Below are positions 12,201 to 31,324 of a DNA stretch of 55,645 nucleotides, piece after piece. This stretch comes from Acidobacteriota bacterium (GTDB lineage: Bacteria; Acidobacteriota; Terriglobia; Terriglobales; Acidobacteriaceae): NCBI GenBank assembly GCA_021806005.1, contig JAJZDM010000013.1, positions 1 through 55,645 of the forward strand, in the 5' to 3' direction. The position numbers and the translations under genes are program-made. The notes under the pieces are model-generated. The model was given only the letters and a program-made list of their open reading frames with translations. It was not told the DNA's origin and did no database searches. The first letter of the stretch is position 1, and each line of letters begins with the position of its first letter.

Positions 12201-12287
12201 GCCGAAGTGGCGGAATTGGCAGACGCGCATGGTTCAGGTCCATGTACTCGCAAGGGTGTGAAGGTTCGAGTCCTTTCTTCGGCACCA
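12201..12287 (+). tRNA. tRNA-Leu (anticodon CAG)
   Basis: A complete cloverleaf can be drawn: acceptor GCCGAAG paired with CTTCGGC, discriminator A and an encoded CCA; a D arm with GGAATTGGCAGAC; an anticodon stem CATGG/CCATG around loop TTCAGGT (anticodon CAG, codon CUG); a long class II variable arm expected for leucine; and a T arm with TTCGAGT. The gene stands alone, at the left edge of the gene-poor DNA that precedes the giant-protein cluster. Confidence 0.97.
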
Positions 12288-13495: not shown

Positions 13496-14032
13496 ATGAA
13501 TTTCAGGAAAACAACTATCTTCAGAGCAGCGATGTCCGCAACGGCCGTGCTCTCTGCTTGCGTTTGCATGGCCACCGTCCTACATGCCCAGAACGCATCC
13601 TGCCACAACAACCTGACGATGTACGGATGGGGTCTGGCGGCGGGTACATTTTCCACCGCCAGTACGCCAAACAACATGAATTTATGGGTGGCGGAGATCT
13701 CATCGGGTAATCCCGAGATTCACGTCACGTTCAATAGAACCACCCCATTGCATCTCACCGTAAGGGCCGGCACAACATGTGAGGGATACGTCAATATCGG
13801 CGGGACGTTTCCCGGCAACATGACATTAATAAACCCACCTGGAAGCGGCACCATCTGCAATGTCACGCTTACAACCTACCTCGCTCGGTTGAATGCGATC
13901 AACGCCACTCCTCCACTGCCCCACCCGCTTCCGGTCAACGCATGCATCGCTGGATTCAACAAGCAAACAAAGCTTTCCCAGGCGGCCAAAGGGGCCTATC
14001 TTCAGCGTTGCGGCGACCCAACCTGCCCTTAG
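13496..14032 (+). CDS. Small exported protein of unknown function
   Basis: The 178-residue protein begins with a clear signal peptide (MNFRKTTIFRAAMSATAV... ending near VLHAQ, cleavage around residue 34). GGGAG lies six bases before the ATG. The mature part is rich in Asn and Thr, with four or five Cys (SCHNN, TTCEGY, TICNV, NACIAG, QRCGDPTC) that could form disulfides, and an ITF-like beta pattern (IHVTFNRTTPLHLTVRAG). I recognise no family. It is the first gene after the promoter at 13166 and the only protein in the cluster with an obvious signal peptide. Confidence 0.7.
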   Translation: MNFRKTTIFRAAMSATAVLSACVCMATVLHAQNASCHNNLTMYGWGLAAGTFSTASTPNNMNLWVAEISSGNPEIHVTFNRTTPLHLTVRAGTTCEGYVNIGGTFPGNMTLINPPGSGTICNVTLTTYLARLNAINATPPLPHPLPVNACIAGFNKQTKLSQAAKGAYLQRCGDPTCP

Positions 14033-14053: not shown

Positions 14054-14413
14054 TTACCCCTCGCCGGCATCTCCCACAGTGGTTACTGATTGCCGCTGGT
14101 AGTAGGTGTTTGTAATAACTCCATTTTTATCGCATAGAAGCAGGCCGTTGTAGTAGCACCAGAGGCTATAACTCGCCGCCGGCAGCCTTTGGTCAAAAGG
14201 GAATTGAGCCGTCCAGTTGGGTGTGCCCGCATCTCCAAAGTACGCGGCGATTTTTGATGGAGAGACAAAGATATTCGTTGCCAGCACCACGAAGGAAACC
14301 GAAGGCGAACTCTCTGAGAATGGAGCAATTGGTGACGCTAGAGCATTTTTTCCGTTGACGACAAGCGAAGTGAGGCTCTCGATACAGCAGTTATAAACAA
14401 TGACTGGATCCAA
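14054..14413 (-). CDS. Small beta-type protein, possible distant paralogue of the two following proteins
   Basis: The 119-residue frame starts at TTG 14413, five bases after GGGGA. It is transcribed against the rest of the cluster. The beginning (DPVIVYNCCIESLTSLVVNG) lines up with the beginnings of the proteins at 14617 and 15088 (PVQVFNASSLAISVTVN, PVILFNASNIALAVAIN). Its FPFDQRLPAASYSLWCYYNG lines up with their QF.S.Q.Y.F....W...LDG ending. The match is weak and rests on my own alignment. The function is unknown. An overlapping frame upstream (to 14520) has no such similarity; I treat it as noise, although a frameshifted longer gene is possible. Confidence 0.5.
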   Translation of the reverse strand: MDPVIVYNCCIESLTSLVVNGKNALASPIAPFSESSPSVSFVVLATNIFVSPSKIAAYFGDAGTPNWTAQFPFDQRLPAASYSLWCYYNGLLLCDKNGVITNTYYQRQSVTTVGDAGEG

Positions 14414-14616: not shown

Positions 14617-15006
14617 GTGTCAGTTCCTGTCCAGGTTTTCAATGCAAGTTCTCTCGCGATCAGCGTCACGGTAAATCAAGGAACGCCCTTCGCGGTAGCA
14701 GCTACCGGTGCTTCGTCCAACTGGGCGCCCAGCGTTCCTACATCGGGTGGCCCCACGTGGACCCCCGGTTATCCTTCACCGAATGTCCTTGGCCAGAATG
14801 CGCCCAACACCATCTCGGCCTCGGTGAACGGAACGGTGATCGGATCCCCGCTCACCTTCACCTTGCCCAGCAGTCAGTTCACGTCTGTCCAGCTCTACAT
14901 CTTCTTTGCGACGATGTCCTCCGTCACCTGGATGGTCCTCGTAGATGGCTCCATTGTTACGCAGCAGACGCTCGCTGCAGCCGTAAAGCACGATGCCGTG
15001 AAGTAA
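14617..15006 (+). CDS. Small FNAS-type protein A (unknown function)
   Basis: The 129-residue protein starts at GTG 14617, six bases after AGAAGGAG. It has no signal peptide and no charged catalytic-looking cluster; the pattern of alternating hydrophobic residues suggests a single beta-sandwich-like domain. It is clearly paralogous to the next protein: both share PV..FNAS..A..V.+N.G near the start, AATG/SATG with WAP a few residues on, a PGYP.PN..G motif in the middle, and QF.S+Q+Y.F.A near the end, followed by W..L+DG. I recognise no described family. The tandem duplicates open the rightward gene set that leads into the giant proteins. Confidence 0.75.
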   Translation: MSVPVQVFNASSLAISVTVNQGTPFAVAATGASSNWAPSVPTSGGPTWTPGYPSPNVLGQNAPNTISASVNGTVIGSPLTFTLPSSQFTSVQLYIFFATMSSVTWMVLVDGSIVTQQTLAAAVKHDAVK

Positions 15007-15087
15007 TCAACTCTTCGGCTTGCGGGCGATGCGGGAGGCATCGCCGTATCGCCCCAAGCCACCACGCATCCATGGAGGCAGAGAGAC

Positions 15088-15468
15088 TTGCCGAGCCCGG
15101 TCATTCTTTTCAACGCCAGTAACATCGCACTCGCGGTCGCCATCAACGCTGGCCCGCAGTTGCCTATCAGCGCCACCGGCGGCATCTATGACTGGGCGCC
15201 GTTTCCACAGTCGGCTCCGCCGTTCCCTCGCCTCTCTCCCGGCTATCCGGAGCCCAACACGATAGGATTCGACCGTCCCAACAGCCTGGTGGCCTACATC
15301 GCCGACTCCCCAAAACCGTCACCTCCATTCCAGTTCACCATCCCCACCGGCACGCAGTTCAACTCGATACAGATCTATCTTTTCTACGCTTCTCCCACAC
15401 AGTGCAACTGGATCGCCCTGCTGGATGGAAAGCTTTTCAGCGAGCTTACCTCTAACTTCCAGCCATAG
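15088..15468 (+). CDS. Small FNAS-type protein B (unknown function)
   Basis: This is the 126-residue paralogue of the preceding protein. The start is TTG 15088, a few bases after GGAGGCAGAGA. MPSPVILFNASNIALAV, SATGGIYDWAP, SPGYPEPNTIG and QFNSIQIYLFYA with WIALLDG match the neighbour position by position. No signal peptide is present, so if it is exported it must use another route or travel with a partner. The tandem arrangement immediately upstream of the 1201-residue protein suggests that both serve as small subunits or partners of it; that is inference from position only. Confidence 0.75.
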   Translation: MPSPVILFNASNIALAVAINAGPQLPISATGGIYDWAPFPQSAPPFPRLSPGYPEPNTIGFDRPNSLVAYIADSPKPSPPFQFTIPTGTQFNSIQIYLFYASPTQCNWIALLDGKLFSELTSNFQP

Positions 15469-15497
15469 CTCGCCTCTCCCGGAAGCCGCGGAAACAT

Positions 15498-18400
15498 ATG
15501 CCTTCGAGCGTAGTAGAAGTTACGACCGGTCTGTATGCCATTCTCTCGGATGCGCAACCGCTGGGCTCCTATGCCTACTTTCTGCTGCGTGCCGATCCTG
15601 CGCCGCCGCTGCCACTGCCCAGCCTGGACGATCTCTGGGATCAAAGTACACGTACCGGCTGGTACATCTTTTCTGCCCTGCCCATCACTGACTTCAACGC
15701 TTTCAAGGCTGCAGCCCGGAAGAACTTCCCGCAGATCACTCAGGAGGACAATCTTCTACCGAGAGGGATGGTCTGGCTGGCGGACCCAGAGGACACTCGA
15801 GGATTCACCAACGCCCTTCTCTGGGGCAAGAACTCCCCCATCCCCAGTTATCCGCGCGTCCTGAGGGCTATGGCCGGTTCGACCAGCATCGCCGTGCGCT
15901 TCATCTTCTCCGGCTTTGTACTCAACGCCACACCGCAAGCGATTGTGACGTACACGAAGGGCGCATTCAGCATCGGAACGACGGACAAGAACCAGACGCT
16001 CTTCCTGCAATACGGCAGCCAGATCCCGCAGCAGACGGTTTCCTGGTATGGGCCGCAGGGATGCAGTATGGCCGTTCCTATCGTCGGATCATCGACGGGG
16101 ATCCTGCAGTTTCAGGTTGGATTGAACCTTGAACCGGTTCAACAGAACTTTGGTTGTACGGTGGCGTATTTTTCAGCTACCGCCGGAGGGGTTGAAACTT
16201 TTACTTATCCTTTCTTCACGCCGCCTCCACCGCAGACGTTCAATGGCTTTTATGTCTGTCTGGATCCGCTCAATCCCCTCATTGCCTCGAGGACTCGCTT
16301 TGCCTTTGACCTTCAGGACCCCAATAATCAGAGCCTTCAGTTTGGCTGCTTTCGCGCCGCCAACGGCGCCAGCATTTTTCTGCAGCCGCAGGGTCCAGGC
16401 TCCTTCAGTCCTCTGCCTGGCTCACCCTGGACCTGGGAGCCTCAAGCCGCGGGGTTTGGATTCTGTCTTGCGCCTCTCTCATCGCAAGTCGCCGCGAGTC
16501 CGGAGTTCTCCTATTACCTCGCCCCGGTGGGCCGCTTTCTCATCCAGGGCGTAGGTTCTACCCCATCGCAAGCCGGTGATCCCATCCGCTGGATGTGCGG
16601 TCTGTTTGGTCAGGAGTACCTGCAGCTCTGCATCGGAGAGACGGTTGAGTTCGTCTCGGGCCAGCCAGCCCTCGCCAACCCCTTTTCGCCACCGTCGTCA
16701 CCCAACGCGCCACCCCCAGTACTGGAATCCACCTTCACCACTTCGTGGCTTCGGATCGATCCAGATCAGGCATCCCCTGAGAACACGGAGACGCGTCGTG
16801 GCTATTTTGCCCAGCCCAGCGCCTCGGTTTTCTTCGCCACTCCCGCGGGTTCTGAGTTTCCCCTGGCCGTGGATGCGCTGCTGTCTCCGCTCGACTATGC
16901 AGTTCTGGCCCCCATTGCCCCTTACGGCGGTATATGTGCAGGAACCGCGTTCCTTTGGCCACCGGGAGCAACGCCGATCTCGGCGGCAAGCTTTGCCGGC
17001 TTCGAGGCAGGCGTACTCAGCAGCGCACGTCATGCGGCTCTGGCCGTCCCCGGTCGAGGGCCCCAGTTTCAGGTGTCCCAACCAATCTTTGCCGGAGTGA
17101 CGCTTCTCCACTCCGCGGCGCAAACGCTTCGCAGCGCAGCAGCAACAGTTCCTGAGAACAGCACCGCGATGACACCTCAGGGCCTCATCGTCTCCCTCAA
17201 CGCTGCCGGGGAGTGGGTGAGCGTCGATCTCGCTCTCAGTCCCGACGACCCCGCGGAGATTCTTCAATTCGGCGGCGGGACGGACTCCCCCAACTCGGTT
17301 GTCTCCCCGGATCTTTCCAGCGTGCTCATGCAAAATCAGTTGTCGCTTGTCGTCTCGGACCCGGTCCGGCTCGGCAGGTTTAGCAACCAACTGCACATGG
17401 GCGGATTCAACTTCCAGTTCATGGTTGGGCGCGAAGAGACGATCCTCGTCTTCAAGTACAACACGTCGAAGTCGCTCGTAGAGATGGTCAACAACCCGTC
17501 GATGTGGGCTGCCAGCGAAGTCTTCATCGGGGATCTCGACGCGATTACCGCTACCCAGGGCAAGCTTTTGAGCGCCATTCAAGTGGCTCAAGACGGAGCG
17601 GGCGCGCCCGGAAACCCCTTTGGCTACTTCAATAGCTTTTCGCTCGATCCTGGCTGGACGGGAATCCTCGCCTTCGGAGCCGCAATCGACGGTAACGGCA
17701 TGCCAGCCGACTTTCAGATGCTCATAGGCGGCATTGACGGCCAACTCCGTGCGCACCACTTCGGCATTGAGGCCAACCACGTACAGAAAGTTAACAACCA
17801 GCTACAGCTTCAAAAGAGCTCTTTACTCGGCGTTATCCACTACGACAACCCAAGCTTGTCTCCGGGCGCCGGAGATTTCCAGTACGCCGTCGAAACGCTC
17901 ACCGTGGTCTTCAGCAACTCCGTGATCTCGCAACTGCAGGCCAGCGTCGGCATGACGATGAATCGCCTGTTTGAGCGGGATGTGCATCTGGTCTCGGAAG
18001 GGGTGTTCTCACCCTCCATCCCGAACACCATGGTGATCAAAGGCCAGTACCAGAGCCAGAATGGCGTTGGCGCATTGCTGTTCTCGGCAGACTCCGCATT
18101 CGATTACAGCTTCGCCTCTGACACCCATGTTCGGATTCTGGACAAAGCCGAAGTTACCCACGCCACCCTTACCCCGGTCTCCTCCGTGCCCATAGGTAGC
18201 CCTGAACCTGGCGTCTCTATCACGGCCACCTTCGGGATGGCCGGACAGATGTATTTTTCTGTCGCGCCCTTCCCGCAAGATCCTGATCTCGACCTCTTCT
18301 CCTATGGAGTTCCTGCCAGTCCCGGCAGGGGCGGACTTCCTTTTACGTCCATGTCTATCTCGATTGCCTTCGAGCTCGACAGCAGTGGCAAACGAAGTGG

Positions 18401-19103
18401 ACCACCCACGTTGACGATGGACCTCACGGCCGTAACGTTCCAATCGGAGTCATCCTCCATCCGTTCAGGAAGCCTTCTCTACAGCCTGCCTCTACAGTTA
18501 TCTCGCTTCCGGTACGCCTCCGCAGGACTGTCCCCCGCCACACTCGGCGCAGTACCCATCCACTGCCTGCAGCTTGAGAGCCATGGCATCACCTCCTCGC
18601 CCAATCAGACCGGCCCTTATCCAGCGGTGGCCACAGCACCGCACTTTGCTCTTGAGTACGATATGCCCCTCGGCTCACTCGGCTCACTCTCCGAGGTGAC
18701 GGTTGGCATCTCCGCCAAGTTGCTCATCGGCTGGGGCCCGTCGAATGTAATCCCGGACAACGATGCTGCGGTCATCCTCGTCCAGCTTCCAGAGGTCTTC
18801 GGCGGTGCTGGTGGCTTCGCGCTTGAAGGCATCCTCCGCACCACCTTTGGAGACGCCAACCTGCTCAAGGTGGACGTCAACGGTCCGGTCTACGCCATCC
18901 TCTTCAGCAACATCAAGTTCAGCGTGCTTGGCTACTCATTTCCGCCGGGCATCCTGATTGACTTCATCCTCTTCGCCGGCCCCCCGCAGGGCGGAGCTGC
19001 CCGCAACACGAGCAACATCGCCTGGTTCCTTGGCGCACAAAAGCCGGCTACACCCAGCTCTCCCCCGAGCCAGTCCTACCGCTTTCTGGAAGGTGCTCCA
19101 TGA
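15498..19103 (+). CDS. Giant beta-rich protein, 1201 residues, unknown function
   Basis: The protein begins MPSSVVEVTTGLYAIL with no signal peptide. It is dominated by alternating polar/hydrophobic segments and turns rich in Pro, Gly, Ser and Asn, as in large beta structures. Landmarks are FNGFYVCLDPLNPL and FGCFRAANG (about 250-290), a Pro-rich linker (NPFSPPSSPNAPPP, about 398), WTGILAFGAAIDGNGMPADFQ (about 720), VVFSNSVISQLQASVGMTMNRLF (about 804), and a C-terminal region of repeated strands ending at SPPSQSYRF. I have an uncertain memory of large uncharacterised bacterial proteins (a DUF6603-like group) with similar strand patterns. Its stop overlaps the next start (ATGA), so translation is coupled. 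Confidence 0.8.
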   Translation: MPSSVVEVTTGLYAILSDAQPLGSYAYFLLRADPAPPLPLPSLDDLWDQSTRTGWYIFSALPITDFNAFKAAARKNFPQITQEDNLLPRGMVWLADPEDTRGFTNALLWGKNSPIPSYPRVLRAMAGSTSIAVRFIFSGFVLNATPQAIVTYTKGAFSIGTTDKNQTLFLQYGSQIPQQTVSWYGPQGCSMAVPIVGSSTGILQFQVGLNLEPVQQNFGCTVAYFSATAGGVETFTYPFFTPPPPQTFNGFYVCLDPLNPLIASRTRFAFDLQDPNNQSLQFGCFRAANGASIFLQPQGPGSFSPLPGSPWTWEPQAAGFGFCLAPLSSQVAASPEFSYYLAPVGRFLIQGVGSTPSQAGDPIRWMCGLFGQEYLQLCIGETVEFVSGQPALANPFSPPSSPNAPPPVLESTFTTSWLRIDPDQASPENTETRRGYFAQPSASVFFATPAGSEFPLAVDALLSPLDYAVLAPIAPYGGICAGTAFLWPPGATPISAASFAGFEAGVLSSARHAALAVPGRGPQFQVSQPIFAGVTLLHSAAQTLRSAAATVPENSTAMTPQGLIVSLNAAGEWVSVDLALSPDDPAEILQFGGGTDSPNSVVSPDLSSVLMQNQLSLVVSDPVRLGRFSNQLHMGGFNFQFMVGREETILVFKYNTSKSLVEMVNNPSMWAASEVFIGDLDAITATQGKLLSAIQVAQDGAGAPGNPFGYFNSFSLDPGWTGILAFGAAIDGNGMPADFQMLIGGIDGQLRAHHFGIEANHVQKVNNQLQLQKSSLLGVIHYDNPSLSPGAGDFQYAVETLTVVFSNSVISQLQASVGMTMNRLFERDVHLVSEGVFSPSIPNTMVIKGQYQSQNGVGALLFSADSAFDYSFASDTHVRILDKAEVTHATLTPVSSVPIGSPEPGVSITATFGMAGQMYFSVAPFPQDPDLDLFSYGVPASPGRGGLPFTSMSISIAFELDSSGKRSGPPTLTMDLTAVTFQSESSSIRSGSLLYSLPLQLSRFRYASAGLSPATLGAVPIHCLQLESHGITSSPNQTGPYPAVATAPHFALEYDMPLGSLGSLSEVTVGISAKLLIGWGPSNVIPDNDAAVILVQLPEVFGGAGGFALEGILRTTFGDANLLKVDVNGPVYAILFSNIKFSVLGYSFPPGILIDFILFAGPPQGGAARNTSNIAWFLGAQKPATPSSPPSQSYRFLEGAP

Positions 19104-19471
19104 TCAACGCAAGCCCAACGGAAACCGTCGGCATGGTTATGGATTGGCTGAATACCATCTTCGGCATGAAGCTGCCCGTTACCCCACCAGGCACCTGGCC
19201 AAGATTCTTCAGAGATTTATGGTACATGCTCGTGCCGCCGCCTCTGCCTTCGCCCGACAGCCCCTTGCCCTGGGTGATTGAGGTCGAAGGCAACTTTGAA
19301 GGTTTGCTCCCCGAGGGAAACACTCTCGAGGTCAAAGCGTGCGTCATCGTTGCGCACCAAACGCCAGCCGTTCCACCGGACAGCAGCTCCTCTGTCACTT
19401 CCGTCTTCACCCACCTCCGCCGGACAACACCTAAACCCAAAAAAGACCAGACCAGAAAGGTAAATCCATGA
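19100..19471 (+). CDS. Small protein of unknown function, coupled to its neighbours
   Basis: The 123-residue protein overlaps the preceding and the following gene by four bases each (ATGA). The first 45 residues are hydrophobic and aromatic (MVMDWLNTIFGMKL, WPRFFRDLWYMLVPPPLP) and might form an amphipathic helix or lie on a membrane. The middle (WVIEVEGNFEGLLPEGNTLEVKAC) looks like a beta hairpin. The last 30 residues are Ser/Thr/Pro-rich and basic (TPKPKKDQTRK). I recognise no family. Confidence 0.7.
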   Translation: MINASPTETVGMVMDWLNTIFGMKLPVTPPGTWPRFFRDLWYMLVPPPLPSPDSPLPWVIEVEGNFEGLLPEGNTLEVKACVIVAHQTPAVPPDSSSSVTSVFTHLRRTTPKPKKDQTRKVNP

Positions 19472-19947
19472 GCAATCAACTAGCCGTCCTCGCTTCACCG
19501 CCAGCACCAGCGCCGGGCGTCTCTGTCGCCGCGACGTTCACCTTCAAAAACGGAACGCCGATCACTGTCAACAGCGGCGACCTGGCTCAACTCAAAGCCG
19601 GAATCGTCAACTTCGCCATCACGGAGCCCGTTGTTCTTGGCAGCGTCAGCGACTTTATCCAGTGGTTGACCGATAAATTTGGCTTTCCCGACATCAACAG
19701 CGAAGTCATTGCCCTCAAGGATCAGGTGCAGAACAACCCTCTGCTCAGCAGCCTCTACGGTGGCTTCCTGAGCTTCTACAACGGCACCATCACCATCACG
19801 GTTCTTTCCATCAGCCGTACCAAGACAGATTACAGCTACCAGTTCGCAGTGACGCTCGACCTGAACCCTCCCATTGAGTTCTTCGATGTCATTAAGTTCG
19901 ACTCCATCGGCCTCGCCGTCAACAAATCGGGAACCTATACCAACTGA
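19468..19947 (+). CDS. Small beta-type protein of unknown function
   Basis: This 159-residue protein starts with the ATG that overlaps the previous stop. It has an AATFTFKNGTPITV strand region, a helical middle (SDFIQWLTDKFGFPDINS) and a strand-rich C-terminus (GTITITVLSISRTKTDYSY, DSIGLAVNKSG). The ending resembles the strand modules of the giant protein that starts eight bases downstream, as if a module had been split off as a separate subunit. It has no signal peptide and no catalytic motif. Confidence 0.72.
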   Translation: MSNQLAVLASPPAPAPGVSVAATFTFKNGTPITVNSGDLAQLKAGIVNFAITEPVVLGSVSDFIQWLTDKFGFPDINSEVIALKDQVQNNPLLSSLYGGFLSFYNGTITITVLSISRTKTDYSYQFAVTLDLNPPIEFFDVIKFDSIGLAVNKSGTYTN

Positions 19948-19955
19948 ACATCCGC

Positions 19956-22900
19956 ATGAGCGAAGCGTTTCTCCAAATCGATGGCACGATCTTTCCCAAG
20001 TCCGCGGCCCCCGTTGCCGTAGAGCTGACCATACAGATCTACGGCGGGCCGTACACCATTCGACTTGCCACACAACAAGGCATCAGCCTGAATGAACTTT
20101 GGAATGCCATCAGCCAGAAGCTGGACGAGCATATCGGCATCTCTTTGCCCAACCTCTCGTCCGGCCCCTGGTCAGAACTTATTGGAGTTGACTCCAAGAC
20201 CCTCGCTACGCCCACCGCCTACATCGGACCCGCAAAGACCGCAGCAAACGCGGGTTCCAGCGGCACCACGGCCTATCTCGGAGTGGAAATCAATCCTCCG
20301 ATCCGAATTGGAGGTAAGAAGCAGTACGGCCCCGTCACCATTGAACTCGAGCCCAAGGTCACGATCCATGCCATGTACATCACCTATGACAATGGCCTGG
20401 ATCTGCGCCTCAAAATCTCGACGCCTACCACTACTGGCCCCACCAGCTCGAGCGACGGCGTGGAGCTGGCTTCCACGGCGGGTCCGGACAAGTTCCAGAT
20501 CGTCACGTACCCGTTTCCCATACCAGCACAGCCCTCCAGTGCCACCAAGGTCTTTGACTTCCGCTATCTCGGTCTGGGCCAGAGGGTTGGTCCGGATCCG
20601 GTGGTCAACGTCGATGATCCGATGGAGAAGATCTTCCATCAACTGGAAAACCAGTTCACGGCAACCGACCCCGCTTCCATCATCAAGAATCTGGCGGAGT
20701 CCTTCTACAAGCCCGACCGTAACTGGTTCGTCGCAGCCCATGTTGTCATCGTGGGCTGGGACATCATGCTGCTCTTCAATGACCCCGCCATGTATGGGCT
20801 GCGTATCACGGTCCCCATGGTCCCGCTCACATTCTTCTCCGGGCTGCTCTTCGAGATCATCTACCAGAAGCTCAGTCCGAATCTCGGCGTCTATTACGGC
20901 GCGCTCACGCTGCCGTATCTGATGCGCCGTATCGTTCTTCAGGGCGTCATCCTCATCCTTCCGGGCTTCGCCATCTGGATCTATACCAACGGTGACTTCC
21001 GCGTAAATGTAGGCTGGCCCCTCGGCGATTCCTCCATTGGGATTCAGGTTGGCGTCTTCATGGGAATCGCCGGCTTCTACTTCGCAAAACTCCGCAGCGG
21101 CGATAATCCGGGCGCGACGCCCTCGACCAATTACAACCCCATCCTGCTCTTCGGCATCGGGCTCTCCGTCTACGTCAAGATCGGCTTCAACGCCAGCATC
21201 CTCAGCGCCAGCCTGGCTGTGAGCCTTACCGCGACACTACAAGGACTCCTCGCCTGGAGGTCCGGCTCCAGCGCTGCAAGCGCCCCTGACCACTACTGGT
21301 TCGCAGGTACGGCCGGGCTCTCCGTCCTGATAGAAGGTTCGGTTGACTTCTCCATCCTCGCGGCCTCGGTCACGATCAGCCTCCAGGCCAACATCGCGAT
21401 CGCCTTCGAAACCGGCTATGCGACGCTGATTGGTGTCTCCGCGGAGGTCTCCGTATCCGTACGCGTGAAGCTGTTCTTCTTCTACATCTCGCTAAGCTTC
21501 AGCATGCGCATCAGTCACGACTTCGTGATCGGCAGCGGTCCTTATGCGTCTGTCTCCGCGCCGCTTGACCCGGCGCTCGCACCCTTTGTCACGCCCTCGA
21601 TCAGTCCCAGGCAGTTACAGGCGCGCCACGTCGCCCGCAAGCTGATGGCAACCTTCGCCACTCAACGTGGATCCATTGCTGCTTTTCGCGCAGGGTGCAT
21701 GGCTGCTGCCGTCGATACCCCCATCCCGCTCGACGTCTACTTCATTTTGCAGTGCACGGCGCTCTATGATGGTTCCCCTGCTTTTGCCTGCGTTGCCAGC
21801 CTTTTCATCCAGGCCCCCGAGCATGCCTCGGGCCCGCAGACTCCGTTTGAGCAACTCGTCCGGGCTCTCCTGCACTGGCTCTACAACGGCTACTCCAACC
21901 CGGCAGAGGATGTAGCCTCTCGCCTGGCGGAACTCGCCGTGGCGCTGGGTGAAGGCAGCGAACCTCCCAGTGCGCAGTTCGGAGGCTTTCTGGGCTTTGG
22001 CGAAGCCCTGAGAGGCTTCCTCTACAGCAGCTTTGCCTTCAGCCTTCACGGTATTGACAGTGGTGCGCCCCCACCGTTCTCTGGTCCCAGCGCGGTTCTG
22101 CCCATGTTCGACAATCTCACGTTCACCTATCCGGTGGTCGGCAGCCCCGATACAGCCCAGGTAGACTTCAACGCCTTCAACACCACACCCCTTGTCTATC
22201 CGCAAGCGGTCAGCATGTACTTCCAGGGTATTGCATGGAGTGGGAGCGGCCAGCAGGCAGTCAACGCGCGTCGCGAGATGGTGCAGCCCGGACCCAGCAT
22301 GGCGTCCTTCCTGATGGCGGACTACTACCTTCTGCTGGCTCGCCAGGTAGTTGCCGGTCTACGCGATCTGGCCTCAACACACATGCAGGAGGCGGAGCAG
22401 GCGTACTTTGCCAGCCTCGAGGCTACCGGCGCTGACTCACTGCACGCGGTCCCTGTTGTGGCCGATTATGTGGCGCAGATCACGGGAGATTCCTCACTCG
22501 ACACGCTCCTCGATCAATACGATTTCTCATCGGCCTCCGGTCTCGGCTCGCGCTTCCTCCTCAACGGCCTGCAACTTCCTGATCCAAACCAGATTCCCGC
22601 TATCCCCACGCCGCAGAACATGCGCGACGTGCCGACCCTTGGTCTCTATATCCTCACCGGCCAGCAATTCACCGTGCCCGCAGGGCTTGCCACAGTGGTG
22701 GCGACGCTCAGCGAAGGTTCTACGTATGCAGCACCACCGACGCCACGTGCGGATGGTCTGTTGCGTGGCGGCGTTCACCTCGCCGCAGCCCCGGGTTCGC
22801 CCATTCAGGCAAGCATCACCCTGCAGGAGCCGGTGCCGCCCATGCCCGCCCCGCAGTGGCAGATCGTCGCGGAGCCGCCCACGATTCTGTCTCCCGGGGT

Positions 22901-25900: not shown

Positions 25901-27005
25901 GCTCTACTTCACCGTGAAGTTCAACCTTCCGCCTACAGCAGAGTTCAAGGGCCTTGCAGCGGAGCAGGAGACCCTGTTCGACGCACTTTCCTACTTCCTG
26001 CAGGAATATGCGCTCCTCTCCGGCGAGCTCAACATCATCCCCAACGAAGCCTACCCGGGTTCGGGTCTGCCATCTCCCGGCCGCGCCGCAGAACTGATCG
26101 ACACCTTCACCAGGGCTACAGAACGTGTGGCGAAAGCATGGTCGTACTACTGGAAGCCAAGCGCCACAGCTATGGCGGTATCGGGCCTCTCTCCGGTTTT
26201 GACCGACGACTTCTATCTCTCCCTGCGCGAAAGCGATGGAGCCGTCACCGTATCCCTCTACGGCGTTACAGACAACGGCGCGAACCCTGCCTTCTGGCCC
26301 AGTGTTACTCCCAGCAGTCACCTCCCCTGGACACCGGATCGCGACAATGCCCGGCCCGCTGCATCGCCTGGAAGATGGTGGGAGCTCTCCCACACCTTTG
26401 CCAACTGCACACTGGAGGACATGGGCAGCATCAGCTTCGGGTGGCAGCAACTCAACATTCTCGACCGCCAGAATGCCACACTGACTGCCAACATCGTCCG
26501 CAATGCAAATCTGCTCGATGACGCCGCACGTCCCACCAACGCCGACTTTGTCTATCGCACCGCCGAGGTTGATTTTGCCAACTCCGCCGTGCCGCTCATC
26601 CAGCGTGCGGAGATAGCCCCCATAGCCCCTGCGGCGACGCTCACTGAGACCATCGAGCAGATACTTGCACCCCTTACCCGGGCAGCCTCCGGCCTACAAC
26701 CCACGCTCCGCATTGGCGCCACCTATCAGTACGATCTCGTTCCTTCACTTCCGGCGTCCATCGCCGTGCTTCTGGCGGACAATATCGACCTTGGCCAAGA
26801 CGGATCGCCACTTCCATCCATCGCGCATGACCTTGCGGCGGAGCTAAGCGTGTGGCACTCCCGCGTAGGTCCTTCCAATCAAGCAGCGCTGCTGGTTCTT
26901 TCACTCACTGTCTTCGGCACGCTTCGGGGAGAACGCCTTCCGATAGTGCAGATCCTGCGGATACCCATCGATGTCTCCGCCGTCACCCACGCGTGGTGGA
27001 GTTAA
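19956..27005 (+). CDS. Giant protein, 2349 residues, unknown function
   Basis: The protein has no signal peptide. Residues 1-250 are strand-rich. Residues 278-350 hold strongly hydrophobic stretches (MVPLTFFSGLLFEII, IVLQGVILILPGFAIWIYTNGDF). Residues 350-528 form a run of alternating amphipathic strands (GLSVYVKIGFNASILSASL, SVDFSILAASVTISLQAN, VSVSVRVKLFFFYISLSFSM), as expected for a large beta barrel or sheet. The remaining 1800 residues are Ala/Pro/Ser-rich, mixed helix and strand, with a tandem 15-bp duplication at 23203-23232 (SASGSPASGSPAS). It ends with a repeat-like strand region and ...THAWWS. The IYTNGDFRVNVG phrase recalls large uncharacterised bacterial proteins, but I cannot name a domain. 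The glycosyltransferase gene overlaps its end by 35 bases. Confidence 0.8.
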   Translation: MSEAFLQIDGTIFPKSAAPVAVELTIQIYGGPYTIRLATQQGISLNELWNAISQKLDEHIGISLPNLSSGPWSELIGVDSKTLATPTAYIGPAKTAANAGSSGTTAYLGVEINPPIRIGGKKQYGPVTIELEPKVTIHAMYITYDNGLDLRLKISTPTTTGPTSSSDGVELASTAGPDKFQIVTYPFPIPAQPSSATKVFDFRYLGLGQRVGPDPVVNVDDPMEKIFHQLENQFTATDPASIIKNLAESFYKPDRNWFVAAHVVIVGWDIMLLFNDPAMYGLRITVPMVPLTFFSGLLFEIIYQKLSPNLGVYYGALTLPYLMRRIVLQGVILILPGFAIWIYTNGDFRVNVGWPLGDSSIGIQVGVFMGIAGFYFAKLRSGDNPGATPSTNYNPILLFGIGLSVYVKIGFNASILSASLAVSLTATLQGLLAWRSGSSAASAPDHYWFAGTAGLSVLIEGSVDFSILAASVTISLQANIAIAFETGYATLIGVSAEVSVSVRVKLFFFYISLSFSMRISHDFVIGSGPYASVSAPLDPALAPFVTPSISPRQLQARHVARKLMATFATQRGSIAAFRAGCMAAAVDTPIPLDVYFILQCTALYDGSPAFACVASLFIQAPEHASGPQTPFEQLVRALLHWLYNGYSNPAEDVASRLAELAVALGEGSEPPSAQFGGFLGFGEALRGFLYSSFAFSLHGIDSGAPPPFSGPSAVLPMFDNLTFTYPVVGSPDTAQVDFNAFNTTPLVYPQAVSMYFQGIAWSGSGQQAVNARREMVQPGPSMASFLMADYYLLLARQVVAGLRDLASTHMQEAEQAYFASLEATGADSLHAVPVVADYVAQITGDSSLDTLLDQYDFSSASGLGSRFLLNGLQLPDPNQIPAIPTPQNMRDVPTLGLYILTGQQFTVPAGLATVVATLSEGSTYAAPPTPRADGLLRGGVHLAAAPGSPIQASITLQEPVPPMPAPQWQIVAEPPTILSPGVVTLSALPPISPHALYFSLKNQTAWQSPANATACTILPLPPQLMQRLASDPGLLLDVTADQPSDHLKKSRSVSGAASISAAPALLIRMTLTQVPAESVGRVSASGSPASGSPASQAPRYLPFVYQLGGTDEATRDLIHAALQGDLKGARLSLLYADGSGYTSQLLAPTTLVAKTNLSTVNQAQSAGPVHLLRALRINDAPTDFAPISDVSDFLRLLWEVSVVNAPGYFLFYEDADGADLPSSLFESSGSQGSTGQLQVLLSYGAPVPRPALQACQNSIWIAQAPTNGTLFGGVLAPDNMPLPQWSPTYPAGNLGFKVEWNPNIPSPPPPFDVDEIYQLLQYSIQAGGGYSNSNWSLPAGPTNPTPDAFSKAIRSNQDWIYTKTLPVADFFTQVAPNKSSRYAIMGHPVTTAFRFDDLFGNVLPAAQTMAVMPLYNDPLINLGEWPGVQLHYQIHSGDSISAALLLRAVFDPEALTPQPSSPPSSPDMPPAETATQQWQSVLDRYLLILDQLLDPNTSATLTCSLRATPTSDPAKFLRQLQQYAQLILDQVYIALADASPSGQGSPAQMVVQEFYGVLPFAQISALPSDISPVSVCVTLSRPASLVDPTVAQRLPSVATMSYAPSPDLEIDSSPYGSPGALTGMAAFAQRFEQAFKGFDDKAGSLKLAQSSGLQESAEFKPLWAVRWSATAGIHVNFPSQPVYFALRPLSTSLITQHSKATGLFYTNVDLDAWAHDFVSACDEFLQPRNAVAIAVLDQRNHTNYFNRLLAAKTSLSQSIPQGVMQLLQDQAGEGDLAAAQTSLTQALLTTLSNAFSVSTILQAPALVGTGTISTGSPVTRPARLWGTVGPHLTQETAGRQYSFSNGEIDLQAGQQILTSLVSVQDASAQSRLTLPLSYQITYLQNDFQPEVDGYVASSWIKFILDTDRQLLLPVQSLADIPIPLPFYPSLPRLVSQTAAAAPYTSPSTSAHAGSNIVEHEIADALRWDYTVVIAHDWATQDQLYFTVKFNLPPTAEFKGLAAEQETLFDALSYFLQEYALLSGELNIIPNEAYPGSGLPSPGRAAELIDTFTRATERVAKAWSYYWKPSATAMAVSGLSPVLTDDFYLSLRESDGAVTVSLYGVTDNGANPAFWPSVTPSSHLPWTPDRDNARPAASPGRWWELSHTFANCTLEDMGSISFGWQQLNILDRQNATLTANIVRNANLLDDAARPTNADFVYRTAEVDFANSAVPLIQRAEIAPIAPAATLTETIEQILAPLTRAASGLQPTLRIGATYQYDLVPSLPASIAVLLADNIDLGQDGSPLPSIAHDLAAELSVWHSRVGPSNQAALLVLSLTVFGTLRGERLPIVQILRIPIDVSAVTHAWWS

Positions 27006-29871
27006 CTCACCCCAACCCGTAAAGATCACCCATTTGATATCTCGGCAAAGCTCCATCAAGCTCGAACATCTCAGTGAATACCGCAACCTCCACCTTGGCG
27101 AGACATTCATCGTCTGTGGTTGTGGTCGATCGCTTGCAGGTTTCACGGCTCCCCACCGTTTCCTCACGATTGGGGTGAACGACGTGGGCCGTCTCTTCCA
27201 GCCGGATTACCTGGTCGTTCTCAACCCCGGGCAACAGTTCACGGGCGACCGGTACCGCTATGTGGAAGAGACCCGGGCCACCGCAGTGTTCAGCCATCTT
27301 CCGCTGAAGCTGCAACATGCTCCGGTTGTGCCGATACGCCTGGGCAAGCGCGGCGGAGTGGATGACGCCGATCCCTCCGCCCTGCACTACACCCGCAACT
27401 CTCCTTATATGGCTGTGTGTCTCGCCATGCACATGGGTGCTGCCCGCATTGGTCTATTGGGTGTTGACTTTACGGACCATCATTTCTTCGGGGATACGGG
27501 ACGCCATCCGCTGACCGGAGAGCTTCGCCAGACCGACGCCGAATACCAGAGGCTCTTCGCCGAGTGCGAACGGCGCGGCATCGAGATCTTCAACCTGAGT
27601 CAGGAGAGCGTCCTCACCTCGCTTCCTCGTTTGAGCCAGGAGCAGTTCACCGCGCGTAGCCTGGCCCATCCGGTAACACCGATGCTGGAGGGCCGCCGGG
27701 TCTTTTTCGTCCACTATCGCTTTCAGACCTGCGGAGAGGTCTTCCGCGACGGCATGGAACCCGCCGCCCGCGAGCTAGGGCTCGATTTTGCCGCAGCCCA
27801 TGCTACGGACCCCGATCTGGAATCCAGAATCTCGGCCTTCAACCCAGAACTTCTGTTCGTTGTTCATGGCCGCAAATTTCACCAGCGCGCCGGCCACCTG
27901 CTGCAGCACTACAACTCTGCAGTGTGGCTGCTTGACGAACCCTACGAAGTGGATGACACCAGCCGGTTTTCGAAGTACTTTCGTACCGTCTTCGTCAACG
28001 ACTCGGGAACGCTCCTCCGCCACAACAACGCTCACTATCTCCCTGTCTGCTACAACCCCTACGACTCCGCCTATCAGGCAAAGCCGCGCCAGTACCGTGT
28101 TGGCTTCATTGGAGATGCTGACCCCGCCCGGGAGCGGCTGCTCGCGCCTTTGGCGGAGCAGGGCCTACTCTCCTACGTTGCTGGCGGTCCATGGCGCTCC
28201 GCTGCTCTTCGTGCTCTGAGCCTTGGCCTGAGAATTCCTGCGGAGCAGACCACGGCTCTTTATCGGGAGACTGAGATCGTGCTTAACATCTTCCGCAGCA
28301 AACACCACTTCAATCAGCGCCGCACTCCGGGAGGCGCTTTGAATCCGCGCGTCTACGAGGCAGCAGCCAACGGCTGCCTACCGCTCTCAGAGCCGCGCAG
28401 CGAGCTTTTCTCACTTTGGCCGCAGGCTCCGACCTTTCACGATGAGGCCAGCCTGATCGGCGCGCTGCAAAGCCTCCTCGATGATCCCGCGCGCGTTGCC
28501 GCTCTCAGCAACTCCGCAGTTCGTGCCTTCCGCTCCCACACCTACGCGCAGCGCCTTCGCTTCGCACTCGGGATCGCTCTCCAACCCCGCCCCGTCTTCA
28601 CCCTTCGAGGCGCTATGCCGACTTACCGCCCCGCTACGCCCGTTTCTGTCTCTGATCCTGAACCGCCGCCTGTGCGCGTGGCTGAACTCCCTGGGTGGAT
28701 CGCAAATGCGCCAGTCGTGCGGCAGGAGTCTGATGGCGTGCTAGTTATCACCAAAGCCAAAGAGGATGCCCCTGGGTCGGAGCGCGGCCTGATGGGAGCG
28801 GAAGCGACGGAGGATCTTACCCTTTCCTTCGAAGTCTGGCTTGATCCCGGCACCAGCTTTCTGGCGAAAGTTCATCAGCAGGATCAAATCGATCAGGCAA
28901 CAAACTCTTACCATCTCCACGCGACAGGCAGCGGCGCGATCGTTGCCCGCCACAATCACGTCCTCGGTCGCTCCAGCTTTCCACCCAACTGCTGGGTGCA
29001 GGTCAGCATGCGTGTCTGTGGCAACCGCCTCGACGTGCAAATCAACGACCAGAATGTCACTATCACGGATGACGTGCTGCCTCGCGGCTTCTGCTTCATC
29101 GGGATCAAAGGCGGTAGAGCCAGGGTCCGCGCACTTTCTTTCATTCCGGGAACACCTACAGACCAGGCGCTTTCTGCGGAGAAGGCGGCTCCCGTTAAGC
29201 CCCCAACCTCCAGCGTGCTGCTCCACTCCGCGCCTCGCACAGAGGCGCCACTCCTCAGCATTATCACTACCGTCTATGATCGGGTGGAATGTCTTGACGA
29301 CTGTCTCGCCTCGCTTGAGGAGCTTACCTATCGCAACTTTGAGCACGTTATTGTTGCTGATGCTCCGGACCCCGCAATTCTTGAGCAGCTCAAAACGACT
29401 ATTGAGCGTCATCCGGTCACGAACAACCGCATCTTCGCAAGCTTGACCCAGCGCCACAACGACTGGGGCATCGCGCCCGCCGCCGCGGGGCTCGCGATGT
29501 CAACAGGTAAGTATGTCGCCTTCCTCTCGGACGACAACGGCTATCTGCCAGACCACTTCGAGCCGCTGATCGCGGCCCTGGAGCGCGATGCCAATCTCGG
29601 CTTCGCGTATAGTTCCTGTCTTTATGCGGGTCGTTGCATTCTCCGCCGCCCGCGTCCCTGTTCCGGCGGCATAGACCTTGGGCAGCCTGTTCTGCGCCGC
29701 GAAACGCTCGACCGTCATCTCAATGGAACATTGCCCTTTGCCGAATTCGGCTGGGACTGGCGCATGATCGAGTGCCTCCTCCGAGCCAATGTCCGGTACA
29801 CCCATATCGACCGCGCCAGCTTCATCTTCCGCCTGCATCAGTATCCGCACCTCAAGAAGGCACAGGCATGA
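26971..29871 (+). CDS. Four-part glycosyltransferase fusion (DUF115-like, CgeB-like, LamG-like, GT2)
   Basis: The 966-residue protein has four visible parts. Residues 25-225: a DUF115/Maf-like region with FIVCGCGRSLAGF, LTIGVNDVGRLFQPDYLVVLNP and IGLLGVDFTDHHFFGD, as in motility-accessory and sialyltransferase-like enzymes. Residues 240-540: a CgeB-type glycosyltransferase (FVHYRFQTCGEVF, NPRVYEAAANGCLPLSE). Residues 595-725: a concanavalin/LamG-like sugar-binding domain (YHLHATGSGAIVARHNH). Residues 757-966: a GT2/GT-A domain (LLSIITTVYDRVECLDDCL, with SDDNGYLPDHF as the DxD region). It overlaps the giant gene by 35 bases and the next gene by four, so it is part of the same operon and probably glycosylates a product of it. 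The true start could lie a few codons downstream. Confidence 0.85.
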   Translation: MSPPSPTRGGVNSPQPVKITHLISRQSSIKLEHLSEYRNLHLGETFIVCGCGRSLAGFTAPHRFLTIGVNDVGRLFQPDYLVVLNPGQQFTGDRYRYVEETRATAVFSHLPLKLQHAPVVPIRLGKRGGVDDADPSALHYTRNSPYMAVCLAMHMGAARIGLLGVDFTDHHFFGDTGRHPLTGELRQTDAEYQRLFAECERRGIEIFNLSQESVLTSLPRLSQEQFTARSLAHPVTPMLEGRRVFFVHYRFQTCGEVFRDGMEPAARELGLDFAAAHATDPDLESRISAFNPELLFVVHGRKFHQRAGHLLQHYNSAVWLLDEPYEVDDTSRFSKYFRTVFVNDSGTLLRHNNAHYLPVCYNPYDSAYQAKPRQYRVGFIGDADPARERLLAPLAEQGLLSYVAGGPWRSAALRALSLGLRIPAEQTTALYRETEIVLNIFRSKHHFNQRRTPGGALNPRVYEAAANGCLPLSEPRSELFSLWPQAPTFHDEASLIGALQSLLDDPARVAALSNSAVRAFRSHTYAQRLRFALGIALQPRPVFTLRGAMPTYRPATPVSVSDPEPPPVRVAELPGWIANAPVVRQESDGVLVITKAKEDAPGSERGLMGAEATEDLTLSFEVWLDPGTSFLAKVHQQDQIDQATNSYHLHATGSGAIVARHNHVLGRSSFPPNCWVQVSMRVCGNRLDVQINDQNVTITDDVLPRGFCFIGIKGGRARVRALSFIPGTPTDQALSAEKAAPVKPPTSSVLLHSAPRTEAPLLSIITTVYDRVECLDDCLASLEELTYRNFEHVIVADAPDPAILEQLKTTIERHPVTNNRIFASLTQRHNDWGIAPAAAGLAMSTGKYVAFLSDDNGYLPDHFEPLIAALERDANLGFAYSSCLYAGRCILRRPRPCSGGIDLGQPVLRRETLDRHLNGTLPFAEFGWDWRMIECLLRANVRYTHIDRASFIFRLHQYPHLKKAQA

Positions 29872-30650
29872 TCTCCTACTGCATCGCATCCTATCGCCCC
29901 ATTTACTCAAGACTCCTGGTGGACGATCTCATCGGCAAGACCTCCGTCCCCTTCGAGATCCTGGTGTGGCTGAACACAAGTGACCCTGACTACCACGCGT
30001 ACCTCGAATCCCTGCAGCGTGCGGCCGCACCTGTACGCATCATCGGCGAATCCCCTGAGAACCTGGGTATGGCTGCCTACAAAAGACTGTTCGCTGAGGC
30101 CCGATACGAGATGATCGTGCAGATCGACGATGATGTCGTCTGCGTCTCTCCACACATCGCCGAAGTGGCCCGTGACATCTTCGCCCGCTTTCCAGAGGTA
30201 GGAATGCTGACCGCGGATGTCTGGCAGGATGATCTGACCACGGGAGCTCGTCCGCATATCTCTGGCTACAGGACGATCAACGCCGTACACGGCCTGTACG
30301 AGGGTCCCATTGATGGATGGTTTGCTGTCTATCGCCGCGCGGTGACGAGCCTCGCCTCCAAGCTTCCCGACGCTCGCTATATGTATATCGGTGCGCACCT
30401 GCTCAGCCTTATGAAGGGTATCGGTATGCAGGGCTATCTCTGCACCCGTATGAAGGTCTTCCACGTCATAGGCCCTCAGTACGCCAACGCCTTCGGAATG
30501 GTCGACTTCGAAATCGGCAAGTACCATTCCATCGCGCGCCATGACGTGGCCAAAGAGTATGAAGACGCGCGTGCGGCGGGCCTTCCAGGTGAGGCTGAGA
30601 TGCAAGGCCGCCTGCAGAGTATCCGCCACCACCTCCAGACCTTTGCCTGA
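29868..30650 (+). CDS. GT-A-fold glycosyltransferase (GT2-like)
   Basis: I start this 260-residue protein at ATG 29868, which overlaps the stop of the fusion gene (ATGA); the open frame extends much further upstream but only inside that gene. MISYCIASYRPIYSRLLVDDL is a normal GT2-type beginning, and MIVQIDDDVVCVSP carries the DxD metal/nucleotide-sugar motif at residues 86-88. The segment GPIDGWFAVYRRAV follows in the acceptor region. It belongs to the same translationally coupled gene set. Donor and acceptor sugars cannot be predicted. Confidence 0.85.
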   Translation: MISYCIASYRPIYSRLLVDDLIGKTSVPFEILVWLNTSDPDYHAYLESLQRAAAPVRIIGESPENLGMAAYKRLFAEARYEMIVQIDDDVVCVSPHIAEVARDIFARFPEVGMLTADVWQDDLTTGARPHISGYRTINAVHGLYEGPIDGWFAVYRRAVTSLASKLPDARYMYIGAHLLSLMKGIGMQGYLCTRMKVFHVIGPQYANAFGMVDFEIGKYHSIARHDVAKEYEDARAAGLPGEAEMQGRLQSIRHHLQTFA

Positions 30651-30670
30651 CCGGAAGCCGAAGACACCCT

Positions 30671-31324
30671 ATGAACCTTTGGTATGACTTTCTCACCAAC
30701 GAACAACGGTCCATCCACAAATGGACGCACTACTTTCCCATCTACGAACGCCACTTCGATCGCTTCCGAAATACGGACGTCATCTTCATGGAGATAGGCT
30801 GCGGCGAAGGCGGATCCCTGCAGATGTGGAAGCGGTACCTTGGCCCCTACGCCCGGATCATCGGTATAGATATCAACCCGGAGTGCGTTGCATTCGCGGA
30901 CGATCAGATCCAGATACGCATCGGTCATCAGGCGGACAGAAGCTTTCTGGCTGAGATGCTTTCGGAGTTTGGATCGCCGGATGTTGTCCTCGACGACGGC
31001 GGCCACAATATGGCCGATATCACCGGAACCTTTGAGTGCCTTTATCCGGCCGTGAGCCGCAACGGTCTTTACCTGGTGGAGGACCTCCATGCCGCCTACT
31101 GGGACGAGTATGGAGGGGGCCTTCATCGCCAGGGGTCCTTTCTGGAGTTCGCCAAGCAACTGATTGACGAACTCAATGCAGACCATACCCGAGGGGCCGT
31201 GCAGCCAACAGAATTTACACGCTCCACGCATTCCATGCATTTCTACGATAGTGTTGCCGTCTTCGAGAAGGGCCGTCATCTCCCCAAGCACGACCTGAAG
31301 ACCGGGCAATCCCGGCCAGGGTAG
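30671..31324 (+). CDS. Class I SAM-dependent methyltransferase (TylF/cephalosporin-hydroxylase-like)
   Basis: The 217-residue protein has the Rossmann methyltransferase motifs FMEIGCGEGGSLQMW (motif I), IIGIDINPECV (acidic end of strand 2), DVVLDDGGHNMADI (motif IV, with the metal-binding Asp pair of the macrocin-O-methyltransferase group) and YLVEDLHAAYW. Members of this group methylate sugar hydroxyls in macrolides and surface glycans. It starts 20 bases after the glycosyltransferase stop and is the last gene of the rightward set, which suggests a final O-methylation of the glycan made by the two upstream enzymes. Confidence 0.87.
   Translation: MNLWYDFLTNEQRSIHKWTHYFPIYERHFDRFRNTDVIFMEIGCGEGGSLQMWKRYLGPYARIIGIDINPECVAFADDQIQIRIGHQADRSFLAEMLSEFGSPDVVLDDGGHNMADITGTFECLYPAVSRNGLYLVEDLHAAYWDEYGGGLHRQGSFLEFAKQLIDELNADHTRGAVQPTEFTRSTHSMHFYDSVAVFEKGRHLPKHDLKTGQSRPG

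What the first reader, a model, noticed from the sequence alone, without database searches (positions are those of the whole stretch)
14617..31324. Candidate undescribed system: giant beta-rich proteins with dedicated glycosyltransferases and a methyltransferase
Nine consecutive rightward genes form a tightly packed set: two small FNAS proteins (129 and 126 residues), a 1201-residue protein, 123- and 159-residue proteins, a 2349-residue protein, a four-part glycosyltransferase, a second glycosyltransferase and a methyltransferase. Gene starts overlap preceding stops at 19100, 19468 and 29868 (ATGA), and the genes overlap by 35 bases at 26971, so several proteins appear to be made in fixed proportion. 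Apart from the last three genes, no product has a recognisable family, a signal peptide or a catalytic motif. I infer a large beta-structured assembly that is glycosylated and O-methylated by its own enzymes, possibly a surface or secreted structure.
Basis: partly seen in the sequence, partly recalled or inferred. Interest (0 to 1): 0.88.

Follow-up and report, generated by a model that had tools for sequence, protein, structure and literature searches.

The report
Undescribed two-giant-protein bacterial operon
This stretch holds a far-diverged copy of a scattered, apparently undescribed bacterial operon built on two giant proteins, which elsewhere usually comes with an enzyme of a kind that often cuts DNA, so it may be a new sort of molecular carrier or surface machine.

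Summary
The nine genes exist as stated and form one tight run. The 1201-aa (A) and 2349-aa (B) proteins match no curated family, yet are not orphans: both hit the same 8 plasmid records, and a profile of B's core finds 246 relative-encoding stretches in GTDB contigs, from 10 phyla in the tree. Spread is sporadic: 5 of 297 Acidobacteriota, 4 of 199 in a Pseudomonas genus sample. A lies before the B core in 79 of 79 testable loci; one genome has A and B fused. In 53 of 83 loci an MBL-fold or EEP phosphodiesterase/nuclease-type protein lies between or near them. The window copy is a deep outlier with two small proteins in that slot. Models are beta-rich without a credible fold match; B's core has six long amphipathic strands. 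Downstream GT2 genes recur in at most 3 of 20 other loci, so glycosylation is not a defining part. Best reading: a new giant-protein assembly that usually carries a nuclease-type enzyme, acting outside the cell. The module is well supported; the mechanism is inferred.

The parts
14617..15006 (+). s1, 129-aa FNAS protein, no signal peptide by a crude rule; profile of s1+s2 found in this genome only (1 of 199 phylum genomes)
15088..15468 (+). s2, 126-aa FNAS paralogue of s1
15498..19103 (+). A, 1201-aa giant; relatives in 79 of 79 testable B-core loci; beta-rich AlphaFold model (pLDDT 77.6)
19100..19471 (+). 123-aa protein in the slot between A and B; no relative found among the fetched loci
19468..19947 (+). 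159-aa protein in the slot; weak collinear similarity to the ~150-aa slot pair (c9) seen mostly in Bacteroidota loci
   Evidence: hhalign probability 13-27%, E 0.002-0.0007, residues 21-152
19956..27005 (+). B, 2349-aa giant
20517..21545 (+). Conserved core of B (about residues 188-530; motif IYTNGDFxxxxGxP); modelled as a meander that ends in six amphipathic strands of 17-21 residues
26971..29871 (+). GT, 966-aa multidomain glycosyltransferase; overlaps B by 35 bases; not generally found with A-B elsewhere
29868..30650 (+). GT2-like protein, 260 aa (below Pfam cut-off: 17.7 against 23.3 bits)
30671..31324 (+). SAM-dependent methyltransferase-like protein, 217 aa; substrate unknown

Best explanation
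Shown: A and B are two halves of one module that is scattered across phyla. They lie together in every testable locus, diverge together, and can be one polypeptide. Around them is a variable slot: most loci hold an MBL-fold (ComEC/LmuA-like) or EEP phosphodiesterase/nuclease-type protein, others two small proteins (as here), other genes or nothing. Inferred: A and B assemble into one very large beta-rich particle that holds or carries the slot protein and works outside the producing cell; the long amphipathic strands of B's core face lipid or line a barrel-like wall and let the particle engage a membrane; small upstream beta proteins and LysM, LamG and collagen-like partners give binding specificity. 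The window copy would be a diverged, enzyme-less version in which s1/s2 and the 123/159 pair take the accessory places, with a glycosyltransferase/methyltransferase set attached locally. In working principle (a large protein case around a nuclease-type cargo) it resembles Tc/Rhs toxins or injection particles, without being shown to belong to them. The confidence is for this whole reading; for the module alone I would put about 0.95.
For: Same 8 plasmid records for both giants. A found before the B core in 79 of 79 loci that hold enough upstream sequence; the other 7 of 86 have under 2.5 kb of contig before B. A-B fusion, 3401 aa, no stop. A and B-core distances correlate (Mantel r 0.83, 46 rows, window included; best of 1000 permutations 0.20). 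Core tree mixes 10 phyla (24 label changes, least possible 9, shuffles 36.7). Slot enzyme in 53 of 83 uncut loci, 11 changes of slot type on the tree. Motifs in the called enzyme ORFs: GDxN-type 23 of 23 and SDH-type 20 of 23 EEP, HxDxDH 27 of 27 and HHGS 25 of 27 MBL; both MBL proteins tested match LmuA and RTasMBL models. Outside the cell: signal peptides by a crude rule on 4 of 9 c7 EEP enzymes and 6 of 14 c8 accessory proteins, and by eye on two MBL enzymes; collagen-like genes right after B in 4 loci, one confirmed by Pfam; LysM in two B relatives and LamG in one upstream protein. Core strands alternate hydrophobic and polar faces.
Against: By the crude rule A (0 of 76) and B (1 of 94, doubtful) have no signal peptide, nor do most slot enzymes (MBL 1 of 27, c6 1 of 10, c16 0 of 4). 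No export or immunity gene was recognised, but neighbours were not searched for them systematically. The window copy has no enzyme, so the carrier reading does not apply to it directly. Fold searches give no credible match (A best: Rhs core, E 1e-4 but probability 0.1 and TM 0.06; B none at E 0.001), and the B model is only moderate (pLDDT 67.9). Pfam matches of the slot enzymes are weak (PF03372 hits 1 of 3 EEP tested, below cut-off; MBL E 0.005 in the one tested), and a further GD[AG] pattern held in only 4 of 27 MBL. In 4 loci the EEP lies before A, not between. B's C-terminal part also occurs without A or core in two places (L005, L015). Nothing shows that A, B and the enzyme bind each other.
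Confidence: 0.35

Rival explanations
1. A structural or adhesive surface assembly (fibre or coat), in which the nuclease-type enzyme serves phosphate or extracellular-DNA use rather than attack, and glycosyltransferases decorate the structure or its collagen-like partner.
For: Collagen-like genes directly after B in L034, L083, L085, L094 (L034's confirmed by Pfam); glycosyltransferase genes behind the collagen-like gene in Aequorivita (four) and Mucilaginibacter (one, fused to a methyltransferase); low charge and high Pro/Ser/Thr of A and B (no comparison set); LamG and LysM parts.
Against: Collagen-like gene seen in only 4 of 86 loci, many of which were read only a little beyond B; GT2 in at most 3 of 20 downstream regions; no signal peptide on A or B; sporadic spread, partly on plasmids, fits conflict genes better.
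Confidence: 0.3
2. Intracellular defence: the giants form a sensor-scaffold that unleashes the MBL or EEP nuclease on phage infection.
For: Both MBL slot proteins tested match LmuA and RTasMBL defence models, one also Avs1a; patchy and mixed across phyla; no signal peptide on A, B and most enzymes; one locus (Azospirillum lipoferum) lies near a type III-B CRISPR locus.
Against: Window A and B match no PADLOC model; no ATPase or switch domain found in A or B by family search; some slot enzymes and accessory proteins carry signal peptides; LysM, LamG and collagen-like partners point outside. Neighbouring genes were not scanned for defence systems.
Confidence: 0.12
3. Lipid-binding or lipid-transfer particle: long amphipathic beta sheets hold lipid, and the EEP/MBL enzyme acts on phospholipid head groups.
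For: Six strands of 17-21 residues with one hydrophobic face in B's core; top fold-search names, though not significant, are outer-membrane barrels including LptD.
Against: No significant match to any lipid-transfer fold; the MBL proteins tested score as LmuA-like, a nuclease-type group (the activity is recalled).
Confidence: 0.1
4. One reading: a glycosylated and O-methylated assembly with its own dedicated glycosyltransferases and methyltransferase.
For: Tight overlap with B at 26971 and ATGA at 29868; similar gene company in two other lineages.
Against: Most other loci read downstream show no such gene among those scanned; no glycan or methyl evidence.
Confidence: 0.13

Closest known systems
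Tc toxin complexes and Rhs shells (recalled, except the fold hit)
   Same: Very large beta-rich proteins without signal peptides, enzyme cargo of nuclease type, scattered distribution; A's best but not credible PDB fold hit is an Rhs core
   Different: No Rhs or Tc family match; the enzyme is a separate gene, not a C-terminal domain; no immunity gene was recognised, though none was systematically sought
Lamassu LmuA, Avs1a and RT-associated MBL nucleases
   Same: MBL slot proteins match these models (L034: LmuA 3e-15; L069: LmuA 2e-12; RTasMBL both; Avs1a L034 only) and MBL ORFs keep HxDxDH and HHGS
   Different: Neighbours are giant beta proteins; two MBL members have a signal peptide by eye; the window has no MBL gene in the operon
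EEP superfamily (Exo_endo_phos, PF03372)
   Same: Slot protein of roughly 30% of uncut loci keeps GDxN- and SDH-type motifs
   Different: Only 1 of 3 members tested hits PF03372, below cut-off (21.4 against 24.5 bits); operon context new
Bacterial collagen-like proteins with glycosyltransferase clusters
   Same: Collagen (PF01391) plus four glycosyltransferase genes after B in Aequorivita
   Different: No collagen-like gene noticed in the window operon; seen in 4 of 86 loci

Membership tests
Tc/Rhs toxins | Rhs/YD-repeat, TcA, TcB or SpvB family match | tested here: not met
   No such family among matches of window A or B, of the B core in 58 members or of 28 A relatives
Tc/Rhs toxins | Hollow beta cocoon enclosing the toxin | tested here: inconclusive
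   A model: Rhs core E 1e-4, probability 0.1, TM 0.06; no coordinates at hand to look for a cavity
Contractile injection systems / phage tails | Sheath, tube or baseplate genes in the locus | tested here: inconclusive
   Not met in the ten window proteins scanned with PHROGs (only a chance-level tail match, E 0.45, of the methyltransferase); 0 of 50,697 phage records hold the core; neighbours in other loci were not scanned with PHROGs
Lamassu / Avs defence | LmuA or Avs1a-like MBL effector | tested here: met
   LmuA for 2 of 2 MBL slot proteins of other loci tested, Avs1a for 1 of 2; the window has none in its slot
Lamassu / Avs defence | LmuB SMC-like or Avs STAND ATPase partner (recalled) | tested here: inconclusive
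   Window A and B match no PADLOC model; other neighbours were not scanned
EEP phosphodiesterases | GDxN and SDH motifs (recalled as catalytic) | tested here: met
   GDxN-type 23 of 23, SDH-type 20 of 23 slot ORFs in other loci; no such gene in the window's slot
Outer-membrane beta-barrels | Closed barrel with signal peptide | tested here: inconclusive
   Listed top hits are mostly barrels but none at E 0.001, TM at most 0.25 among the 50 listed; no signal peptide in window B by a crude rule
Glycosylated surface protein systems | Glycosyltransferases conserved with the substrate protein | tested here: not met
   GT2 among scanned downstream genes of at most 3 of 20 other loci

The most novel reading that the evidence does not exclude
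A-B is a new class of giant-protein machine, unrelated to Rhs, Tc or contractile systems, that packages interchangeable nuclease cargo for action outside the cell in at least ten bacterial phyla; the window shows a diverged branch that has replaced the cargo with small proteins.
Probability: 0.3. Interest if true: 0.92.

Novelty: categorically new. Interest (0 to 1): 0.74.

Why it matters
Two very large proteins, shared by Cyanobacteriota, Bacteroidota, Pseudomonadota, Actinomycetota, Bacillota, Acidobacteriota and others, have no model in the family libraries searched and no description in the papers searched here. An A-enzyme-B operon with a swappable nuclease-type gene is a concrete, testable candidate for a new delivery or surface machine, and culturable hosts (Chitinophaga, Mucilaginibacter, Pseudomonas) make tests possible.

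Tried and rejected
Family searches: Pfam, PHROGs and NCBIfam on ten window proteins, PADLOC on window A and B and Pfam on relatives gave nothing for A and B beyond LysM (two B relatives, one of 28 A relatives) and chance-level matches. DUF6603 came to mind from recall as a look-alike; no Pfam result named it, and no paper in the library holds the term. An aegerolysin look of the c12 proteins, also recalled, failed in Pfam for the one tested. s1/s2 against c12, c8, c32 and c241 by hhalign: no relation; L043:934-1371 looks alike by eye only, BLAST finds nothing. Phages, E. coli (one DNA query) and PDB sequences: nothing credible. A glycosyltransferase-family search of 9 genomes was too unspecific to use. 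The blastp with the window's GT, GT2 and MT over the 20 downstream regions found only the Mucilaginibacter gene by its own relative; it missed the Aequorivita genes that Pfam found, so it is insensitive. Paper searches listed no description of the system, judged by titles and abstract starts; passages only were read in PMC3482391 and PMC12419801.

Limits: the signal-peptide rule is crude. The ORF caller takes the longest frame; in GC-rich loci it chose wrong frames, which tblastn repaired in L067, L076 and L095. In one search two MBL proteins (c33: L089, L090) were counted as EEP, and one EEP-like slot gene (L092) as 'other'. The 53 of 83 counts loci with an enzyme relative on the same strand anywhere in the fetched stretch by tblastn; by called ORFs, an enzyme of these families lies strictly between A and B in 37 of 76 loci, and in 19 of 76 no ORF was called there. 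The 246 stretches come from two patterns, so a gene may count twice; only the best 80 loci were kept and used. Of 86 downstream genes listed (from 18 of 20 regions) were scanned. The core tree is the quick kind, and the window's long branch makes its place unsure.

Full report
What is there. The nine genes are real and in the stated places: two FNAS paralogues s1 and s2, A (1201 aa), 123 aa, 159 aa, B (2349 aa), a multidomain glycosyltransferase, a GT2-like protein and a methyltransferase-like protein, with overlaps of 4, 4, 35 and 4 bases and gaps of 81, 29, 8 and 20. Curated libraries name only the last three. A 180-aa gene with a likely signal peptide lies upstream (13490-14032), behind a promoter-like site at 13166 that matches 11 of 12 consensus bases; the region as a whole has no excess of such sites.

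Relatives. With the window proteins alone, relatives are nearly invisible: in 150 genomes of the same family only the own genome for A, and for B the own genome plus one remnant of the C-terminal part; none in a first GTDB contig scan. tblastn against plasmids broke this open: both giants hit the same 8 of 72,556 records, in Nostoc, Mycetohabitans, Azospirillum (2), Embleya, Paenibacillus, Tistrella and Lysinibacillus. An alignment of B's core then found 246 relative-encoding stretches among 288 pattern hits in GTDB contigs; the best 80 loci were kept. In samples the core is sporadic: 5 of 297 Acidobacteriota genomes including the own, 4 of 199 in the genus of a Pseudomonas locus including that locus's genome, 0 of 50,697 phage records, 1 locus in IMG/VR, no match in 20,395 E. 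coli records with one DNA query.

A and B are one unit. Of 86 loci with the core (80 kept plus 6 plasmid loci), A was found by blastp in 76 and by tblastn in three more whose A had been hidden by wrongly chosen frames; the remaining seven have under 2.5 kb of contig before B. Order and strand agree: accessories, A, slot, B. A third family, c2, lies before A in 46 loci; the window has none. Four further Acidobacteriota loci, two further Pseudomonas loci and the IMG/VR locus agree. In one of the Acidobacteriota genomes A (to about residue 1188) and B (core from 1217, to the end) are a single 3401-aa frame. Distances between loci in A and in B's core correlate with r 0.83 over 46 rows. Against a strict pairing, B's C-terminal part occurs without A or core at two places, a same-family remnant and a second Embleya place. 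B is split at varying places (Paenibacillus, Tistrella, Mycetohabitans, Saprospiraceae), and the part before its core is shorter where two small proteins fill the slot.

The slot. By tblastn, 26 loci carry an MBL-fold protein and 27 were scored EEP (two of these, L089 and L090, are MBL by their sequence); 10 carry the c4/c5 small pair of Cyanobacteriota, 6 the c9 pair, 14 other or nothing, and 3 are cut. In the called ORFs, HxDxDH holds in 27 of 27 and HHGS in 25 of 27 MBL (a GD[AG] pattern in only 4 of 27), GDxN-type in 23 of 23 and SDH-type in 20 of 23 EEP. The two MBL proteins tested match LmuA and RTasMBL models; one also matches Avs1a. The slot type changes 11 times on the core tree. In four loci (L039, L048, L049, L071) the EEP has a signal peptide and lies before A. 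In the window the slot holds the 123- and 159-aa proteins; only the 159-aa protein has a weak, collinear likeness to c9.

Distribution. The quick core tree of 58 rows needs 24 changes of phylum label where 9 is the least possible (shuffles 36.7), with starred cross-phylum pairs; the window is a very long branch (3.48; best identity 36%). This fits repeated transfer, though mis-binned contigs and paralogues can add changes.

Structure. AlphaFold2 on 62 A sequences gave pLDDT 77.6 and pTM 0.59, mostly beta; on B 1-1105 with 53 sequences pLDDT 67.9 and pTM 0.46. B's core ends in six strands of 17-21 residues, each with one hydrophobic face. Foldseek gave no credible match for either; B's listed top hits are mostly outer-membrane barrels with a few membrane pores, none at E 0.001.

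Where it acts. By a crude rule A and B lack signal peptides (0 of 76 and 1 doubtful of 94), but accessory proteins (c8 6 of 14) and some slot enzymes have them. B relatives can hold LysM, an upstream Nostoc protein holds LamG, and collagen-like genes with a shared motif (WSYMILNGI or near it, by eye) follow B directly in four loci. This favours action outside the cell by a route not recognised nearby; it is inference.

Glycosyltransferases. Stretches of 11.5-14 kb that start near the end of B were read for 20 loci. Of 79 downstream same-strand proteins from 18 of them, scanned together with the window's GT, 7 of 80 matched GT2: the window's, four in Aequorivita, one in Mucilaginibacter fused to a methyltransferase, and one not traced. 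So the window's set is a local attachment with parallels in two other lineages, not a defining part.

Verdict. The operon A-(slot)-B is a real, sporadic module, undescribed as far as the libraries and the paper searches here go. My mechanism, a giant beta assembly that carries a nuclease-type enzyme and meets membranes outside the cell, is the best fit but is mostly inferred. The window's own copy lacks the enzyme and may do something else.

Noticed in passing
14054-14413 (-): Divergent 119-aa frame whose sequence resembles s2 weakly (24% identity over 93 residues, E 0.014); possibly a third FNAS-like gene. hhalign did not support it.
   Followed up: partly
13490-14032 (+): 180-aa protein with a likely signal peptide and several Cys; no family.
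   Followed up: partly
12201-12287 (+) and 511-1323 (-): tRNA-Leu 2.3 kb before the operon and an IS4/5-type transposase at the window's start; whether this is an inserted island was not tested.
   Followed up: no
L034, L083, L085, L094 downstream of B: Collagen-like proteins sharing a motif like WSYMILNGI (by eye) across Bacteroidota and Ignavibacteriota.
   Followed up: partly
L033:19598-21244, L040:18215-19990: Related 549- and 592-aa proteins after B that look, by eye, like long amphipathic helices.
   Followed up: no
L012:1210-2955, L013:5028-6008, L032:3-464: Hint-domain protein upstream of A in Tistrella (annotated) with a tblastn relative in Embleya; a Hint-like piece by eye in Peptococcaceae.
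   Followed up: no
L009: Azospirillum lipoferum A-B locus lies among IS elements, a few kb from a type III-B CRISPR locus, on a plasmid.
   Followed up: no
G455, G435, G429: Three, two and two copies of the B core in one genome each.
   Followed up: no
L005:11217-12275 (-): Remnant of B's C-terminal part (352 aa) in a same-family genome, with a transposase-like frame about 7 kb away.
   Followed up: partly
31768-33294 (+): Protein with two GDSL esterase-type stretches, the next gene after the operon.
   Followed up: no
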